Assembly (NCBI GenBank): GCA_003285105.1
Contig: CP030158.1
Coordinates: 1,526,501 to 1,590,500 of the forward strand
Length of the DNA: 64,000 bases
Origin: Roseithermus sacchariphilus
GTDB lineage: Bacteria; Bacteroidota; Rhodothermia; Rhodothermales; MEBIC09517
Direction: 5' to 3'
A model generated the notes under the pieces. That model saw only the letters and a program-made list of their open reading frames with translations. It was not told the origin of the DNA and searched no databases. The translations under genes and the position numbers were made by a program. Shown here one piece after another: positions 33,457 through 44,850 of this stretch. Numbering within the stretch: the first letter of the stretch is position 1; each line of letters opens with the position of its first letter.

Positions 33457-34848
33457 ATGCCGGCTTCTGCCTCCTGGATGCGCCCCGACCAGACGGCGCT
33501 GTTCACCGACCTGTACCAGCTCACCATGTTGCAGGCCTACGTGCGCGAGGGGATGCACGAGGAGGCGGTCTTCGACCTGTTCGTGCGGCGCCTCAAACAC
33601 CGCAACTACCTCCTCGCCTGTGGCCTGGATACGGTGCTGGAGTTCCTCGAAACGCTCCGCTTCTCCGACGAAGCGCTCGGCTACCTGGCCTCGCTGGATC
33701 TCTTCCGGCCCGACTTCCTCGACTTCCTGGCCGATTTCCGCTTCACGGGCTCGGTCTATGCCCTCCGGGAAGGCACCCCCTTCTTCCCGGACGAGCCCGT
33801 CCTGCAGGTCGTCGCGCCCATCGGGCAGGCGCAACTGGTCGAGACGTTCCTGCTCAATCAGATCACCTTCCAGACCGGGATAGCCTCCAAGGCGAGCCGG
33901 GTGGTCCACGCCGCGCAGGGACGCCCCGTGGCGGATTTCGGGATGCGCCGGATGCACGGGGTGGATGCGCCGCTGAAGGCGGCCCGTGCCTACTACATCG
34001 CCGGCATTGCCAGCACCTCCAACCTGCTCGCCGGGCACCTCTACGGGCTGAAGGTGACGGGGACCATGGCCCACAGCTACATCGAGGCGCATGACCACGA
34101 GGCCGACGCCTTCCGGGCGTTCGCCGAGCTGTATCCCGGCACGACGCTCCTGGTCGACACCTACGACACCCTCGACGGCGTGCGGCGGGTGGTCGACCTG
34201 GTCCGGACCCACGGCCTGAGGGTCGGCGCCATCCGGCTGGACTCGGGCGATCTGGACACGCTGGCGCGGCAGGCCCGGCAGATCCTCGACGAGGCCGGCC
34301 TCGCCGACGTCCGGATCTTCGCCAGCGGCAGCCTCGACGAGCACCGGATCGCCCGGTTGCTGGCGCAGGGCATCCCGATCGATGCCTTCGGCGTCGGTAC
34401 GCGGATGGGGACGATGGCGGATGCGCCGTACCTGGACACGGCCTACAAGCTCAGCGCCTATGCCGGCACCCCCCGCATGAAGCTGTCCGCCCAGAAGTCG
34501 AACCTGCCCGGCCGCAAGCAGGTCTACCGCCTCAGGGATGCTTCCGGCCTTGCCGTGCAGGACGTCATCGCCACGGCCGACGAGGCCCACGAGGGCGAGC
34601 CGCTGCTGGAGTGCGTCATGCGCGACGGCGTCCGCACCGAGGCCGGCCGGCGCTCGCTGGACGAGGCCCGCGCGCACGCGCAGGACGAGTTGCAGCGCCT
34701 GCCGGAACGCCTCCGCGCGCTGGACCCCGCCGATCCGCCCTACCCCGTCGTCTTGAGCGAGGCCCTCCAGGCCCGGCTGGACCAGACACGCCACCGTCTG
34801 GAAAACGGGGCGGGACCGGCGAACGAGGCGGTCAACGCACCGCGCTGA
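33457..34848 (+). CDS. pncB: nicotinate phosphoribosyltransferase
   Basis: 463 residues from MPASASWMRPDQ; an upstream TTG start at 33427 is weaker. Landmarks: LFTDLYQLTMLQAY, FVRRLKHRNYLLACGLD, FETFLLNQITFQTGIASKASR-like middle (with variation), DFGMRRMHG, GTMAHSYI, and the phosphoribosyl-binding GAIRLDSGDL with GVGTRMGTM. It converts nicotinate and PRPP to nicotinate mononucleotide (Preiss-Handler route). Its last 17 bases overlap the converging HlyD gene. Confidence 0.96.
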   Translation: MPASASWMRPDQTALFTDLYQLTMLQAYVREGMHEEAVFDLFVRRLKHRNYLLACGLDTVLEFLETLRFSDEALGYLASLDLFRPDFLDFLADFRFTGSVYALREGTPFFPDEPVLQVVAPIGQAQLVETFLLNQITFQTGIASKASRVVHAAQGRPVADFGMRRMHGVDAPLKAARAYYIAGIASTSNLLAGHLYGLKVTGTMAHSYIEAHDHEADAFRAFAELYPGTTLLVDTYDTLDGVRRVVDLVRTHGLRVGAIRLDSGDLDTLARQARQILDEAGLADVRIFASGSLDEHRIARLLAQGIPIDAFGVGTRMGTMADAPYLDTAYKLSAYAGTPRMKLSAQKSNLPGRKQVYRLRDASGLAVQDVIATADEAHEGEPLLECVMRDGVRTEAGRRSLDEARAHAQDELQRLPERLRALDPADPPYPVVLSEALQARLDQTRHRLENGAGPANEAVNAPR

Positions 34849-36121
34849 AGTAGACCCGCCGGACGTTCTCGAACACGTAGCCGAAGAAGCTCTTGCGTTC
34901 GAGCTCGACGGCCAGCTCGCCCGTCATGCCGACGCTGAGGTACGGCGCCAGGCGGCCGGCATCGGTGATGGCGACCTCGAAGGGGTAGCGCCCGTCCGTG
35001 TCCGGCGTGACGCTGAGCGCCTGGATGCGCCCCTCGACGACGCCCCACTCGTAGTGCGGGAAGGTGGCGACCTTGAGGATGACGGGGTCGTCCACGTCGA
35101 TGAAGCCGATGCGTTGCGGCGAGATGCTGGCCTGGGCGTAGAGGGCGGTAGCGGAGGGGAGCGTCTTGTAGAGCAGGCTGCCGGCGGGCAGTTCGCGGCC
35201 CACCTCGGCCACGAAGGAGAGGGTGCCGGCCGCCGGCGCCTTCACGATGAGGCCGTCCGGCGCCACCTCGAAGGGGCCGTAGGTGCGCAGCAGCGCCTGC
35301 CGGGCCTGCTCCTCCTCGAGGGCGTAGCTCTGGGCCAGCCGCTGCATCTCATGCTCCACCTCGGCCCGCTGCCGGGCCGCGATGGCGGCATTCAGCGAGG
35401 CCTGGGTGATCTGCGCGTCCAGGTCGGCCACCTCCTTGCGGCGCGCTTCGATGAGCAGCGCCAGGTCGGCCTCGGCCACGATGCGGGCCTCCTCGGCCTC
35501 GCGGAACTGCTCGCGCGAGATGAACTGCCGCTCGACGAGCTGGCGCTCGCGCTCGTAGCGATCCCGGGCCTGCTCGGCCAGGCGGGTGAGCTTGTCCCGC
35601 TGCTGCACGAACAGCCGCCATCCGGCCCGTTTCTGTTCCTCGTAGGCGGCGATGGCCTCGCGGTACCGATCCTCCTCCAGTTGCAGCGTCTCGATCTGGG
35701 CCTGATAGACGGCCTGCTCGGTCGTCTCGAAGAGCCGGCGGCGCTGCCGGGCGGCTTCGTAGGCCTCCACGGCACGCACCACCTCGGGCGCGTTGATCTT
35801 GACCAGCGGCGCCCCGGCCTCCAGCACCGAGCCGACCTCGGCGTAGCGTTCCAGCACGAAAACGGGGTAGGAGAACTGCCGTACCTGCTCCTGCTGCGTG
35901 CCTTTCAGCACGAAGGCTTCCTGGTAATACCGGGGGATGCGAATGGCCGATCCGAGCAGCACGAAGAGCGCCGTCAGACCCACGCCGGCATAGACGAGCA
36001 GCCGTAGCGCGCTCGTGCGCACGTCGGCCAGCGGCACGTCGTCCTCGTGGTAGAGGTCGTCGATCTGGATCGGTTCCAGCATGGCGCCGGCCGAGCCGGG
36101 CTCGAAGCGGGATGTCTCCAT
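34832..36121 (-). CDS. HlyD-family membrane fusion protein
   Basis: 429 residues. One membrane helix near 40-65 (LVYAGVGLTALFVLLGSA). Then a first half-lipoyl region (FVLERYAEVGSVLEAGAPLVKIN), a long alpha-helical hairpin of about 190 residues (acidic/basic coiled coil, REQFREAEEARI), the returning lipoyl half (IVKAPAAGTLSFVAEVG) and a beta-barrel domain. The hairpin is longer than in RND adaptors and fits type I secretion. It would link the C39 ABC exporter to an outer-membrane channel. A TnpB element lies between its start and that exporter gene. Confidence 0.9.
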   Translation of the reverse strand: METSRFEPGSAGAMLEPIQIDDLYHEDDVPLADVRTSALRLLVYAGVGLTALFVLLGSAIRIPRYYQEAFVLKGTQQEQVRQFSYPVFVLERYAEVGSVLEAGAPLVKINAPEVVRAVEAYEAARQRRRLFETTEQAVYQAQIETLQLEEDRYREAIAAYEEQKRAGWRLFVQQRDKLTRLAEQARDRYERERQLVERQFISREQFREAEEARIVAEADLALLIEARRKEVADLDAQITQASLNAAIAARQRAEVEHEMQRLAQSYALEEEQARQALLRTYGPFEVAPDGLIVKAPAAGTLSFVAEVGRELPAGSLLYKTLPSATALYAQASISPQRIGFIDVDDPVILKVATFPHYEWGVVEGRIQALSVTPDTDGRYPFEVAITDAGRLAPYLSVGMTGELAVELERKSFFGYVFENVRRVYFSAVR

Positions 36122-36344
36122 GGCATCGGTGTCCAGGGCAGGGGACGGACGCAGGCCGGAGGGCGAAGGTCGGCAGGGAACCCGTGTCGGCCCGTCGACC
36201 GTCCGGCTCCGTCCACGTCAGAGAAAAAGGTCAGGGTTAGCAAAGGCAAGGAGCCTCTCGTCTTTCAGGCGGGAGAGGAATGGCCCCTTGTTCTCGGCGA
36301 TGTGACACAGGGCTGACATCCCTGCCGCGGTATGTTTGCGAACG

Positions 36345-37517
36345 ATGGATGCCTTCCGAATCATCTCCTGCCCCATCGAGGCCACACCCGAGCAGGCCGC
36401 CAGGATCGAAGCCACGCTTCGATCCTTCGCTCGCGCCTGCAACTACGTCGCCCTGCGTGGCAAGCAGGAGAAGGTGAGTGCGAAGCGGAAACTGCAGAAG
36501 CTCTGCTACTACGACGTGCGCGAGCGCTTCGGCCTCTCGGCCAATCTCGCCATTGCCGCTATCCAGCGCGTGAGCGTGGCGGTGAAGACGTCGGGGACCC
36601 GCGAGGTGTCGTTCCGCCCCAAGAGCGCCGACTACGACGCCCGCACGTTCTCCTTCCGGGAGCGCGACTGGAGCGTGAGCCTCACGCTTCTCGGCGGTCG
36701 CGAGCGGTTCCCCCTGAGGATAGGGACCTGGCAGAGGGATGCCCTCACCGGCACGGAGCCCAGGAGCGCTGTGCTCTGCAAGAAGTCGAACGGTCGGTAC
36801 TACGTGGACATTCGGCTGCGGCGAGAGCAGCCGCCGAAGCAGGAGGGTGCCGGCACGCTCGGCGTGGACATGGGCGTGAAGAACATCGCGGTCACATCCA
36901 CGGGCACCATCTACAGCAGCGAGGCGCTGAACGCCTACAGACTGGAGCGGCACCGGGTCCGCAAGTCCCTCCAGTCCAAGGCCGCGAAGGGCACGCGGAG
37001 CAGTACCCGGCGCAATTGTCGGAAAGCCCTTGCACGCTTGTCGGGTAAGGAGCGCAGGCGCTGCAAAGAGGAGAACCACGTCATCAGCCGCCGCATCGTC
37101 CGCGAGGCGAAGGCCGGCGGGCTCACCATCGTGCTCGAGGACCTCACCGGTATCCGGGACAGGACGAACCAGCGTTTGCGCCGGAGCCAGCGGGGATTGC
37201 ACAACCGGTGGTCTTTCCACCAGCTCCGGCAGTTCATCGAGTACAAGGCGGCGGATGCCGGTGTGCCGGTGATAGTCATCGACCCCCGGTACACGAGCCA
37301 GACGTGCGCCCGCTGCTACTGCATCGGGAAGCGGCGTGGCGACTCCTTCCATTGTCCAAACTGCGGTCATAACGATCACAGCGACAAGAACGCTGCGAAG
37401 GTTATTGCCGCAGTCGGGGGCGCCATGAGCCGTCCTGAACGATCTGCTGTGTACTGTGTCTGGCACGGTGCTGAAGGCAAGGTCGAAATCTCCCGTCTTC
37501 AGACGGGGGAAGCTTAA
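36345..37517 (+). CDS. tnpB: TnpB, RNA-guided endonuclease of IS605/IS1341 type
   Basis: 390 residues from ATG; an upstream TTG at 36336 is less likely. An intact RuvC triad is seen: Asp175 in GVDMGVKN, Glu265 in VLEDLTG and Asp347 in HSDKNAA. The zinc-ribbon pairs are C321/C324 and C337/C340. The N-terminus (SCPIEATPEQAARIEATL, FARACNY) fits the WED/REC part of TnpB. The DNA is visibly less GC-rich than its neighbours, fitting transfer. TnpB proteins cut DNA next to a short motif, guided by an RNA made from the element's right end. The stop overlaps the exporter's stop by 3 bases (tail-to-tail). Confidence 0.93.
   Translation: MDAFRIISCPIEATPEQAARIEATLRSFARACNYVALRGKQEKVSAKRKLQKLCYYDVRERFGLSANLAIAAIQRVSVAVKTSGTREVSFRPKSADYDARTFSFRERDWSVSLTLLGGRERFPLRIGTWQRDALTGTEPRSAVLCKKSNGRYYVDIRLRREQPPKQEGAGTLGVDMGVKNIAVTSTGTIYSSEALNAYRLERHRVRKSLQSKAAKGTRSSTRRNCRKALARLSGKERRRCKEENHVISRRIVREAKAGGLTIVLEDLTGIRDRTNQRLRRSQRGLHNRWSFHQLRQFIEYKAADAGVPVIVIDPRYTSQTCARCYCIGKRRGDSFHCPNCGHNDHSDKNAAKVIAAVGGAMSRPERSAVYCVWHGAEGKVEISRLQTGEA
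37400..37517 (+). ncRNA. putative omega/reRNA scaffold at the tnpB 3' end
   Basis: In this family the guide RNA scaffold overlaps the end of tnpB and its last hairpin lies at the element right end. Here the hairpin at 37492-37507 and the following GGGGAAGCTTAA match that layout. The guide part would be whatever sequence flanks the right end, here the antisense of the exporter gene from about 37518. The 5' limit is arbitrary. Confidence 0.45.
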
Positions 37518-39712
37518 AAGTTCAGGTACGTCTGCATCAGCGAATAGTAGAGGCCTTCGCGCTGGAGGAGGTCCTCGTGCCGGCCGTCCTCCACGATCCG
37601 ACCCCGGTCCATGACCAGGATGCGGTCGGCGTCGCGGACGGTGCGGAGGCGGTGGGCGATGGAGAGGATGGTCTTGCCGGCGAAGTGGGTTTCAACGTTT
37701 CGCATCACCAGGCGTTCGGCTTCCGGGTCGAGGGCGCTGGAGGCTTCGTCGAGGATGATGACGTCCGGGTCGGCCAGGAAGAGGCGGGCGAAAGCGATCT
37801 TGAGGCGTTGCCCGCCCGAGAGCGCGCTGCCGCTCTCGCCGATCATGGTGTTGTAGCCCAGGTAGAGCTGCTGCACGTCCTCGTGGAGCCCGGCCAGCTC
37901 GGCCGCGCGCACGATGTCGTCCATCGACGCCTCGGGGTTGCCGTAGCGGATGTTGTCCTTGAAGGTGCCGTCGAAGAGGTGGACCTGCTGCGGGACCATG
38001 GCGACCGTCCGGCGGAGCGCCCGGGGGTGCAGGCGACGCAGTTCCACCCCGCCGAGGGTGATCGTCCCGTCGTAGTCGTGGTACAGACCGGCCAGCAGCT
38101 TGGCCAGGGTCGTCTTGCCCGACCCGTTACGGCCGATGAGGGCCACCCGCTCGCCCGGCTCGATCGTCAGGTCGATGCCCTGCAGGATCGGGCGGTCGGG
38201 AGCCTGCGGGTAGGCGAAGTGGAGGTTCGTCAGCACCAGCGGGCCGGGCGGCACCTGCGTGTGCTGCTCCAGCAGGTCGGCCGTCTCGGGCTCCTCCATG
38301 AATACGTCGTTGAGCCGTTCGTAGGTGATGGCCAGTTCCGTCACCAGGAACCACAGGCCCGAGACGTTGTCGAGCGCCGTCATGGCCAGGGTAAAGATGG
38401 CGATGAAGGCCACGTACTGCCCGATCGTCATCGCCCCGGTGAAGGTCAGGTAGGCCCCGATCCAGTAGATGCCCACCTGGCTGAGGAAGAAGGCGCTCTT
38501 GAGCAGCGATTGCAGCCCGATGTGGGTCTGCTCCGTCTCCAGCACCTTGTTCAGCGCGCGTTTGTAGCGGTTCTTCCACTCCTGCAGCTTCAGCCGCTCC
38601 AGCCCCAGCAGCTTCACCGTCTGGATGCCCAGCAGCGTGTCCAGGAAGCTGCCCATCGTCTTCAGGTTCTCTGCGAAGATCTTGTTCTCCAGCCGCTTCA
38701 GCCGCGGGGTGAAGAAGATCGTGACGAGGACGACGAACCCGATGAACGCCGCGGCGATCACGGCCAGCAGCAGGTTGTAGAAAAAGAAGATGATCAGGGC
38801 GTTGACGACGAACAGCAGGTCGATGAACGCCTGCAGGATCGACGGCGAGAAGGCGTTGCGGACCTTGAGGTTCTCCTGGAAGCGGTTGATGAAGTCTTCG
38901 CGCTTGTAGGCGTCGAAGTAGCGCTGCGGCAGCGAGATGAGATGGCGGAAGAACTGGCTGAAGAAGTCCAGCTCGAAGCGCACCTTGAACTGGGTCAGCA
39001 GCAGGTTGCGGACGTAGGTGAGCAGGATCTGCGTGAGCAGGACGAGCACCATCCCGCCGAGGATGGCATAGAGCAGCGTGCGGTCCTGGTAGACGAGGGC
39101 CTTGTCTAGGATGACCTGGGTGAAGAACGGCAGCGCCAGGGCCAGCAGTTGCAGGACGAAGCTGGCCAGGAGGATCTCGCCCAGGACGGCCCGGAAGGGC
39201 CGCAGCAGGGCCAGGTAGAACCGGGAGCGGAGGGTACGCTGGCGCTCGCGCTGCGCGGCGATCAGGTCGTCGACGTCGGGGTTGTCGTGCACCGCCGGGG
39301 TGGGCTCCAGCGTCAGCACGATGCCGTTCCAGCGGCTCTCGAAGTCCGCACGCGCCAGCCGGTCCCGGCCGTAGGCGGGGTCCACGATGCCGACGTGGTC
39401 GGCGCCGACCGATTCGATGACGACGAAGTGGTTGCCCTCGTAATGGGCGATGCAGGGCAGCGGCAGCTCCCGGAGCTGGTCGTAGCCGAGTTCGTAGCCG
39501 TCGGCCGTGAAGCCGAAGGTCTCGGCCAGCTCGCTCAGCGTGAACAGGTCCGTGCCTTCGGCGCTGACGTGCCCCAGCCGCCGCAGCGTGGGCTGCAGGT
39601 TGTAGAGCCCGTGGTACTTCAGGATCATCGCCAGGCACGTCGTCCCGCACTCGGTCATGTCCCGTTGCAGGAGGACGGGGACCGTACGCTGTTTGCGGAG
39701 AAACCCGAGCAT
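37514..39712 (-). CDS. C39-peptidase-containing ABC exporter (PCAT type)
   Basis: 732 residues from ATG 39712 (a TTG two codons upstream is weaker). N-terminal C39 peptidase: catalytic Cys22 in D-M-T-E-C-G-T-T-C, His95 in GNHFVVIES and Asp111 in VDP, all intact. Six-helix transmembrane domain about 155-440. ATPase domain: GRNGSGKTTL near 525, LSGGQ near 629, then DEASSALD. These proteins cleave double-glycine leaders and export the peptide with a HlyD adaptor and an outer-membrane channel. The last codon before the stop is Phe; the TAA stop reads from bases shared with the TnpB element's right end, so the original C-terminus may have been a few residues longer. Confidence 0.95.
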   Translation of the reverse strand: MLGFLRKQRTVPVLLQRDMTECGTTCLAMILKYHGLYNLQPTLRRLGHVSAEGTDLFTLSELAETFGFTADGYELGYDQLRELPLPCIAHYEGNHFVVIESVGADHVGIVDPAYGRDRLARADFESRWNGIVLTLEPTPAVHDNPDVDDLIAAQRERQRTLRSRFYLALLRPFRAVLGEILLASFVLQLLALALPFFTQVILDKALVYQDRTLLYAILGGMVLVLLTQILLTYVRNLLLTQFKVRFELDFFSQFFRHLISLPQRYFDAYKREDFINRFQENLKVRNAFSPSILQAFIDLLFVVNALIIFFFYNLLLAVIAAAFIGFVVLVTIFFTPRLKRLENKIFAENLKTMGSFLDTLLGIQTVKLLGLERLKLQEWKNRYKRALNKVLETEQTHIGLQSLLKSAFFLSQVGIYWIGAYLTFTGAMTIGQYVAFIAIFTLAMTALDNVSGLWFLVTELAITYERLNDVFMEEPETADLLEQHTQVPPGPLVLTNLHFAYPQAPDRPILQGIDLTIEPGERVALIGRNGSGKTTLAKLLAGLYHDYDGTITLGGVELRRLHPRALRRTVAMVPQQVHLFDGTFKDNIRYGNPEASMDDIVRAAELAGLHEDVQQLYLGYNTMIGESGSALSGGQRLKIAFARLFLADPDVIILDEASSALDPEAERLVMRNVETHFAGKTILSIAHRLRTVRDADRILVMDRGRIVEDGRHEDLLQREGLYYSLMQTYLNF

Positions 39713-39815
39713 GGGCAAGGAAGAGACGCGCAGACCGGTGGGGAACGTCGGGGCGCCTGAAAATACGGTGGGCGGTGCGGAATTGCGCCACCGCTGCCGG
39801 CTGTTCGGGGGCGCG

Positions 39816-43120: not shown

Positions 43121-44200
43121 ATGAAGCTGCCCTCGATCCACCGCGCTCGCCCCGGGTTGCACGCGCTCTCGTTCAAGCTGGCGGTGGCCGTGACGCTGGC
43201 CGCCGCCGTGCCGGCCTTCGCTGCCTGGTCATGGTACGCCGTCCCGGCGGCGGCGGCGGCGGCCGGGGTGGCCGGCCTCGGGCTGGTGACCTATGCCGTG
43301 GCCTACGGGCTCCTGGCCCGGCGGCTGGAGCTGGCCTATTCGATCCTGAAGCAGATCCGCCGGCATCAGTTCGACAACCTGAATCTGGCCCGCCTCCCGC
43401 ACGGCGACGAGCTCAACGCGCTCATCTGGCAGGTCTACCGCACCGGGCAGGCCCTGGAGAAGGAGATCCGCGAGATGAAGAAGATGGAGAACTACCGGCG
43501 CGAGTTCATCGGCAACGTCTCGCACGAACTCAAGACGCCCATCTTCGCCATCCAGGGCTTTGCCGAGACGCTGCTCGACGGCGCGCTGGAGGATGAGCGC
43601 GTCAATCGGGCCTTCCTCCAGAAGATCCTCCACAACACGGGCCGGCTGGCCAACCTGGTGCGGGATCTCTCCGAGATCTCGAAGATCGAGACGGGCGAGC
43701 TGGAGATGGTCCGCAAGCCGTTCGACCTGCGGCGCGTCGTGCGGGAGGTCGTCGAGTCGATGGAGCACATGGCGGCGGCGAAAGACGTCGCGCTCCGGGC
43801 GAGCCTGCCGGAGACGCTGCCGCGGGTCATGGGTGACCGGGAGCGGATCCAGCAGGTGCTGATCAACCTGGTGGACAACGCGATCAAGTACAACAACGCC
43901 GGCGGACACGTGGAGGTGACCGCCCGCGTGCGGCCGGACGGCGAGGTCGAGATCGCCGTGGTCGACGACGGAATCGGCATTGCCCCGCAGCACATCCCAC
44001 GCCTGACCGAGCGGTTCTACCGCGTCGACAAGAGCCGCTCGCGCCGGCAGGGGGGCACGGGGCTCGGGCTGGCCATCGTCAAACACATCATCGGCGCCCA
44101 CGACCGCCGCCTCCTGATCGAAAGCCGCCCCGGCCGCGGGTCCACCTTCGCCTTCACCCTCGAAGCCGCCCCGCCGGCATCGGACGGCGAACGCGGCTGA
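43121..44200 (+). CDS. PhoR-like sensor histidine kinase
   Basis: 359 residues. Two membrane helices at about 20-75, with only a short loop between them, so no large external sensor domain. HisKA motif SHELKTP with phospho-His135, then the N, G1 and G2 boxes ([31 protein letters not shown]). It pairs with the upstream response regulator. The C-terminal end [11 protein letters not shown] is followed at once by a 12-bp minisatellite. Lack of a sensor domain suggests membrane or partner-protein sensing. Confidence 0.95.
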
Positions 44201-44211
44201 GCACGAGGGCA

Positions 44212-44324
44212 GCGCCCGGAACGCCGCCCGGAACGCCGCCCGGAACGCCGCCCGGAACGCCGCCCGGAACGCCGCCCGGAACGCCGCCCGGAACGCCGCC
44301 CGGAACGCCGCCCGGAACGCCGCC
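44212..44324. repeat. 12-bp minisatellite, eight exact copies
   Basis: Unit ACGCCGCCCGGA, exact from 44221 to 44316 (8 copies), with partial copies on both sides (44212-44220 and 44317-44324). It fills the gap between the histidine kinase and the MarR gene. It is 4 codons in any frame. Expect length differences between strains. Confidence 0.97.
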
Positions 44325-44385
44325 TCCGCTGTGGCCGTTGAAAGCTGTTGCGACAAATAACAGCCCGGCCGGTGCCGCACGCTTC

Positions 44386-44850
44386 ATGAAACTATCGGAT
44401 CTCATCCAGCAGACCCGTTTCGCTTCTCCGGCTCAGGAGGCGATGCTCAACATCATGGTGACCAGTTCGTGGCTCACGAGCGAACTAACCGGGGCCATGG
44501 CGCCCTTCGGCATCACGCCGGCCCAGTACAACGTCCTGCGCATCCTGCGGGGCAGCCACCCGCGCAAGCTCACCTGCACGGACATCAGCCGGCGCCTGCT
44601 GGACCGTACGCCGGACGTGACCCGGCTGCTGAACCGGCTCGAACGCAGCCGCCTGATCCACCGCGCCCGCGCCGACCACGACCGGCGCGTGGTGGAGGTC
44701 GGCATCACGGGGGAAGGGCTGGCGCTGCTGGAACGGGTGGACCCCGTGGTGGCCGACGTGCAGGCCCGCATCGCCCGGCACCTCTCGCCCGAGGAGCACC
44801 GGCAACTGAGCGCCTTTCTGGAACGCCTCCGCACCGATCAGGTGGCCTGA
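44386..44850 (+). CDS. MarR-family transcriptional regulator
   Basis: 154 residues from ATG 44386. Winged helix: [42 protein letters not shown] (recognition helix) and the wing [12 protein letters not shown]. The MarR order (dimer helices at both ends) is complete. It follows the minisatellite. Targets could include its own promoter or the transporter downstream. Confidence 0.95.

What the first reader, a model, noticed from the sequence alone, without database searches (positions are those of the whole stretch)
34832..39712. TnpB element splits a C39-ABC / HlyD export unit
The C39 exporter and the HlyD adaptor both lie on the minus strand and belong together functionally, yet tnpB on the plus strand lies between them. 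The exporter TAA stop (37514-37516) is shared with the tnpB TAA (37515-37517) within TTAA, so the element's right end gave the exporter its final stop. HlyD expression may now need a new promoter. The RuvC triad of TnpB is complete, so the enzyme may be active.
Basis: partly seen in the sequence, partly recalled or inferred. Interest (0 to 1): 0.62.

Follow-up and report, generated by a model that had tools for sequence, protein, structure and literature searches.

The report
Jumping gene silently replaces stop codon
A small mobile element carrying an RNA-guided nuclease gene has landed exactly in the stop codon of a peptide-exporter gene, separating it from its partner gene without changing the exporter protein: an ordinary type of element in a neatly silent position.

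Summary
A C39-ABC exporter (37514-39718, minus) and an HlyD adaptor (34832-36121, minus) flank a plus-strand tnpB; both stops share TTAA at 37514-37517. A second, 95% identical genomic copy defines a 1,296-bp tnpB-only (IS1341-type) element, 36222-37517, preceded by TCAG. Four related genomes hold the exporter-HlyD pair uninterrupted, so the element does split a conserved pair. It did not change the exporter: the nearest relative ends at the same residue, and joined flanks give AAC TTC TGA where the element now gives AAC TTT TAA. The same silent C-TGA to T-TAA swap fits copy 2 (FecR gene), and a right-end relic abuts a deacetylase stop. NNC/NNT are always synonymous, so such insertions never alter the protein. 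About 28% of tolerated TCAG sites in the window are such stops, so target preference plus purifying selection can explain two or three cases; active stop-codon targeting is not shown, and a sister right-end type in another genome is not at convincing stops (0 of 3). No Y1 transposase was found. A new member of a known kind with a tidy insertion logic; HlyD expression and TnpB activity remain untested.

The parts
37514..39718 (-). C39-peptidase ABC exporter (734 aa from TTG; ATG at 39712)
   Evidence: 69% identical to G028 exporter over residues 8-734
34832..36121 (-). HlyD-type periplasmic adaptor, partner of the exporter
   Evidence: orthologue downstream of the exporter in G028
36222..37517 (+). 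IS1341-type (tnpB-only IS200/IS605-like) element, 1,296 bp
   Evidence: 95% identity with copy 2 ends at these borders
36345..37517 (+). tnpB, RNA-guided nuclease gene (390 aa), RuvC D175/E265/D347, zinc-finger cysteines
36218..36221 (+). TCAG retained at the left flank: inferred target site / TAM; its complement holds the C-TGA of the original exporter end
   Evidence: shared by both copies; joined flanks restore the stop; inference from two sites
36254..36278 (+). left-end hairpin CCTCTCGTC..GGCGGGAGAGG
   Evidence: sequence, both copies; fold of the region
37489..37510 (+). right-end hairpin TCTCCCGTC-TTCA-GACGGGGGA
   Evidence: fold; pattern repeated in the genome
37400..37517 (+). predicted reRNA scaffold overlapping the tnpB 3' end
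   Evidence: fold z -3.0, 0 of 200 shuffles as stable; position by analogy with ISDra2 (PMC8612924)
37514..37517 (+). TTAA right terminus: holds the exporter stop (37514-37516, minus) and the tnpB stop (37515-37517, plus)
37518..37533 (+). predicted 16-nt guide: antisense to the last exporter codons
   Evidence: inference from ISDra2 reRNA layout
36331..36338 (+). TATGTTTG, Bacteroidota-like -7 box (consensus recalled) upstream of tnpB
   Evidence: conserved in copy 2
36122..36217 (-). 96-nt original spacer between exporter stop and HlyD ATG

Best explanation
A tnpB-only, IS1341-type element of the IS200/IS605 kind inserted 3' of a TCAG tetranucleotide whose complement was the last base of the final exporter codon plus its TGA stop (NNC TGA). 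The element ends in TTAA, so the opposite strand now reads NNT TAA: the final residue is unchanged, translation still stops, and only the path to HlyD is interrupted by 1.3 kb of antisense element. The element is kept where it does no protein damage. TnpB with an RNA from the right end would be guided by the exporter's last codons and would cut the empty allele (TCAG next to the guide match) but not the occupied one (TTAA there). Shown: borders, second copy, intact pairs in relatives, restored stop on joining flanks, catalytic residues in place. Inferred: TCAG as TAM, reRNA production, cutting, effect on HlyD.
For: Copy 2 at G000:C1:4702144-4703451 is 95% identical exactly over the element; both are 1,296 bp between TCAG and the right flank. 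Joined flanks restore AAC TTC TGA (exporter) and AGC CCC TGA then 15 nt then the receptor ATG (FecR / TonB-receptor pair). The G028 exporter ends at the same residue with TTC TGA and carries TCAG unoccupied at that point. Uninterrupted exporter-HlyD in G028, G105, G106, G107. The right-end relic at a deacetylase stop reads TAT TGA; the five orthologues printed read TAC TGA with TCAG and an aligned flank; 20 of 30 loci (own included) stop right after that residue. dN/dS about 0.21 between the tnpB copies over 370 codons.
Against: Only two full copies, so the TCAG border is inferred from two sites; TCA with a TTA end would fit the stop equally. No strain pair with and without the element at the same site is known; the nearest empty site is 69% identical in protein. 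No Y1 transposase was found, so present mobility is doubtful. FecR homologues vary at the C-terminus: 8 of 29 (own included) end exactly there.
Confidence: 0.83

Rival explanations
1. The element truncated or extended the exporter, and the present stop and C-terminus are a product of the insertion.
For: The TAA letters do lie within the element's right end.
Against: The G028 exporter ends at the aligned residue, and flanks joined without the element give a TGA at the same place.
Confidence: 0.05
2. The element actively seeks stop codons, or its two ends have evolved so that occupancy of C-TGA stops is silent, as a survival strategy.
For: 2 of 2 full copies and the one right-end relic in this genome abut a convergent stop with the same reading phase.
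Against: 19 of 67 tolerated TCAG sites in the window (28%) are such stops, so 2 of 2 has chance 8% and 3 of 3 about 2% under preference plus purifying selection alone (crude gene calls). Three right ends of a near-identical sequence in G019 are not at convincing gene stops (0 of 3).
Confidence: 0.12
3. tnpB and its right-end RNA have been taken over as a regulator of the exporter-HlyD pair (antisense or guided).
For: The predicted guide is antisense to the exporter 3' end; tnpB is under purifying selection.
Against: Catalytic residues are in place, unlike catalytically dead TnpB-derived regulators (recalled); copy 2 sits in an unrelated pair; no RNA evidence.
Confidence: 0.05

Closest known systems
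IS1341-type elements (tnpB only, IS200/IS605 family)
   Same: About 1.3 kb, single tnpB, left and right ends with hairpins, tnpB ending at the right end, few copies per genome (PMC9956272 passages: more than half of its IS1341 elements are 1252-1393 bp).
   Different: TCAG / TTAA border pair inferred here; both full copies lie in a stop codon of a convergent gene.
ISDra2 (IS200/IS605, TTGAT target) and its TnpB
   Same: Insertion 3' of a short target that stays at the left flank, no target duplication; RNA guide read from the right flank (PMC8612924 passages).
   Different: ISDra2 has tnpA and TTGAT; here no TnpA and TCAG inferred; phmmer to the chain 8bf8_A (TnpB, also 8ex9/8exa) E 2.5e-9, that this chain is ISDra2's is recalled.
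Peptidase-containing ABC exporter with HlyD adaptor (NHLM / type I kind)
   Same: C39, membrane and ATPase domains followed by an HlyD gene.
   Different: Best NCBIfam model TIGR03796 scores 530 bits, under its cut-off of 853; no leader-peptide gene found nearby (simple scan).

Membership tests
IS200/IS605, IS1341 group | TnpB with RuvC D/E/D and zinc finger | tested here: met
IS200/IS605, IS1341 group | tnpB the only gene between the ends | tested here: met
   borders by copy 2, one long coding-strand ORF between them
IS200/IS605, IS1341 group | subterminal hairpins at both ends, no target duplication | tested here: met
IS200/IS605, IS1341 group | insertion 3' of a fixed short target kept at the left end | tested here: inconclusive
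   TCAG in 2 of 2 copies; too few sites
IS605 proper (with TnpA) | Y1 transposase gene | tested here: not met
   PF01797: no match in the whole genome at E 0.001, 1 candidate scored
RNA-guided nuclease TnpB | right-end RNA and guided cutting next to a TAM | not testable with these tools
   fold of the right end z -3.0 is only suggestive; no Rfam match
C39-ABC exporter with HlyD | conserved adjacency exporter then HlyD | tested here: met
   G028, G105, G106, G107, 4 of the 6 related exporter loci fetched; G018 and G048 have another large ORF there instead

The most novel reading that the evidence does not exclude
The element's two ends form a matched pair (TCAG left behind, TTAA or TCAA brought in) such that landing in any C-TGA stop of a convergent gene is always protein-silent (NNC TGA to NNT TAA/TGA), and this makes stop codons its preferred long-term home, with the TnpB guide then reading the gene's last codons to defend or spread that address.
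Probability: 0.13. Interest if true: 0.5.

Novelty: new member of a known kind. Interest (0 to 1): 0.3.

Why it matters
It shows how a small RNA-guided-nuclease element can enter an operon-like gene pair without touching either protein, and gives a simple, testable rule: the genetic code makes a TCAG-to-TTAA swap silent at NNC-TGA stops. It also corrects the idea that the exporter's end was changed by the insertion.

Tried and rejected
HlyD peptide scan of genome contigs found no relative (84 stretches, none confirmed); the TnpB scan found only 3 relatives at 37-46% with other right ends. A plasmid search gave 33 records, all under 60% identity. The TnpB phylum sample gave no other member: 1 of 394 genomes, the own one, at E 1e-85; in the order 6 of 114 at E 1e-30, own included, the other five at 40-46%. 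Ends of those loci were printed and belong to other right-end types, so they say nothing about this family's sites. In one search the script picked the wrong open frame for several loci (for example L057, L053, L059, L063, L055); those rows were not used.

First border model (target TCA, element ending TTA, host A next; TCAA census, 2 of 20 tolerated sites) was replaced by TCAG/TTAA, because three G019 right ends keep the final A with G, C or T next. Both models restore the same stop.

Active stop-codon targeting: considered, not shown (see rivals). Promoter/terminator scan of 36050-37700: 0 promoter-like sites; 1 terminator-like, shuffles 1.1. Rfam: nothing. Leader-peptide scan around the exporter: one unlikely hit inside another gene. 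The third TnpB of the genome (L001) is another family (about 30% identity over half its length). No structure was predicted; sequence sufficed.

In the held library, searches (listings seen) and passages of PMC8612924, PMC7290912 and PMC9956272 showed no report of stop-codon-silent insertion of such elements; subscription papers are mostly not held, so this is weak.

Full report
What is there. The window lies at G000:C1:1526501-1590500 of a 4.81-Mb, one-contig genome. On the minus strand are a C39-peptidase ABC exporter (37514-39718) and an HlyD adaptor (34832-36121); on the plus strand between them is tnpB (domains). The exporter stop (complement of 37514-37516) and the tnpB stop (37515-37517) share TTAA.

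Element borders. A DNA search of the own genome with 36122-37560 gave the window itself, one other near-full copy (95% over query 90-1396) and a 34-base right-end match. Alignment of the two copies shows that similarity begins about ...TCAGAGAAAAAGG and stops at ...GCTTAA. Taking TCAG as the retained target, both elements are 1,296 bp: 36222-37517 here and L008:5157-6452 for copy 2. Both ends carry a hairpin with a CTCYCGTCTT..CGGG core. The right end with the tnpB 3' part folds better than all 200 shuffles (z -3.0), as expected of a right-end RNA scaffold, though Rfam has no match. The final A of TTAA is taken as element-derived because three right ends in G019 that share 26 of 29 letters with this one all end in TCAA and are followed by G, C and T.

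Does it split a real unit? Yes. In G028, the only order member with a close exporter (69% identity, residues 8-734), the HlyD gene starts 44 nt after the exporter stop. In G105, G106 and G107 (exporters 30-31% identical) an HlyD_3 protein starts 7-9 nt after the exporter stop. In G018 and G048, the other two exporter loci fetched, another large ORF follows instead. HlyD itself was found at E 0.001 in 4 of 114 order genomes, own included. Here the gap is 1,392 nt, and would be 96 nt without the element. Both genes are intact open frames with strong third-position GC bias, so no decay is visible.

Was the exporter changed? No. The G028 exporter ends ...LMQNYLAF* (TTC TGA) and this one ...LMQTYLNF* (TTT TAA). 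Joining the flanks outside the element gives, on the minus strand...TAC CTG AAC TTC TGA CGT. Hence the insertion replaced C TGA by T TAA. NNC and NNT always encode the same residue and TGA and TAA both stop, so the protein is untouched.

The same at the other sites. Copy 2 lies between a FecR gene and a TonB-receptor-like gene on the minus strand; joined flanks give AGC CCC TGA, then 15 nt, then the receptor ATG, a tight pair; today it reads AGC CCT TAA. FecR homologues end at varied distances: 8 of 29 examined (own included) stop exactly there, the rest 1 to 9 residues later save two odd rows. The right-end relic (L010) abuts the stop of a histone-deacetylase-family gene, reading TAT TGA. Of 30 loci examined (own included; 38 genomes matched), 20 stop directly after the same residue and 10 do not; in the five orthologues printed the end is TAC TGA with TCAG and the aligned flank TACCAGTA. 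Thus all three right ends of this family found in the genome abut a convergent stop in the same phase.

Is that more than chance? With crude gene calls (49 genes) the window has 351 TCAG sites on both strands: 284 inside coding, 48 not inside, 19 at stops of opposite-strand genes. Stops are thus 28% of tolerated sites; two of two has chance 8%, three of three 2.3%. TGA preceded by C is the commonest gene end here (19 of 49). So insertion at TCAG with loss of harmful insertions is nearly enough. Against a general stop-codon habit: the three G019 right ends of almost the same sequence, two of them with a TnpB only 25-28% identical, show no convincing gene stop (0 of 3); two of them do touch an antisense open frame of 150 and 93 codons that I judged by eye not to be genes.

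Is TnpB alive? The RuvC residues and zinc-finger cysteines are in place. Between the copies, over 370 codons, about 33 synonymous and 23 nonsynonymous changes give dN/dS near 0.21, which suggests selection on the protein. Copy 2 has one G less in its right-end hairpin, which shifts only its last residues. No Y1 transposase is encoded in the genome by PF01797, so movement may have ended or needed a helper.

How it would work. By analogy with ISDra2, where TnpB binds an RNA from the right end whose last 16 or so bases come from the flank, and cuts next to the transposition target motif (PMC8612924, passages seen), this TnpB would be guided by 37518 onward, the antisense of the exporter's last codons, and would cut an exporter allele lacking the element (TCAG before the guide match) but not the occupied one (TTAA before it). 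This is inference. G028 keeps TCAG at the same place but its guide stretch differs, so cutting across species there is unlikely.

Verdict. An IS1341-type element, a new member of a known kind, seamlessly placed in a stop codon.

Noticed in passing
L045:5997-6728 (G028): The G028 HlyD orthologue is only 243 aa: it lacks the middle coiled-coil part (about residues 112-285 of the window HlyD), yet both flanking parts match in one frame.
   Followed up: partly
L142, L143, L144 (G019): Three right ends nearly identical to this family's, two with a TnpB only 25-28% identical to the window's and one apparently without tnpB: right ends shared by distant TnpB types suggest a common mobilising transposase.
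   Followed up: partly
window 36726-36749 and L008 (copy 2): Differences between the two tnpB copies are clustered (codons 128-135, 168-169, 221-223), as if by gene conversion from a further copy.
   Followed up: no
L010:3791-3824: Right-end relic without tnpB at the end of a histone-deacetylase-family gene, possibly kept as a hairpin at its 3' end.
   Followed up: partly
L001 (G000:C1:3103434-3103637): A third, distant TnpB (398-aa open frame) in the genome with a different right end.
   Followed up: partly
window 44154-44405: Minus-strand frame with a run of [10 protein letters not shown]-type repeats: a short tandem repeat in or beside a gene end.
   Followed up: no
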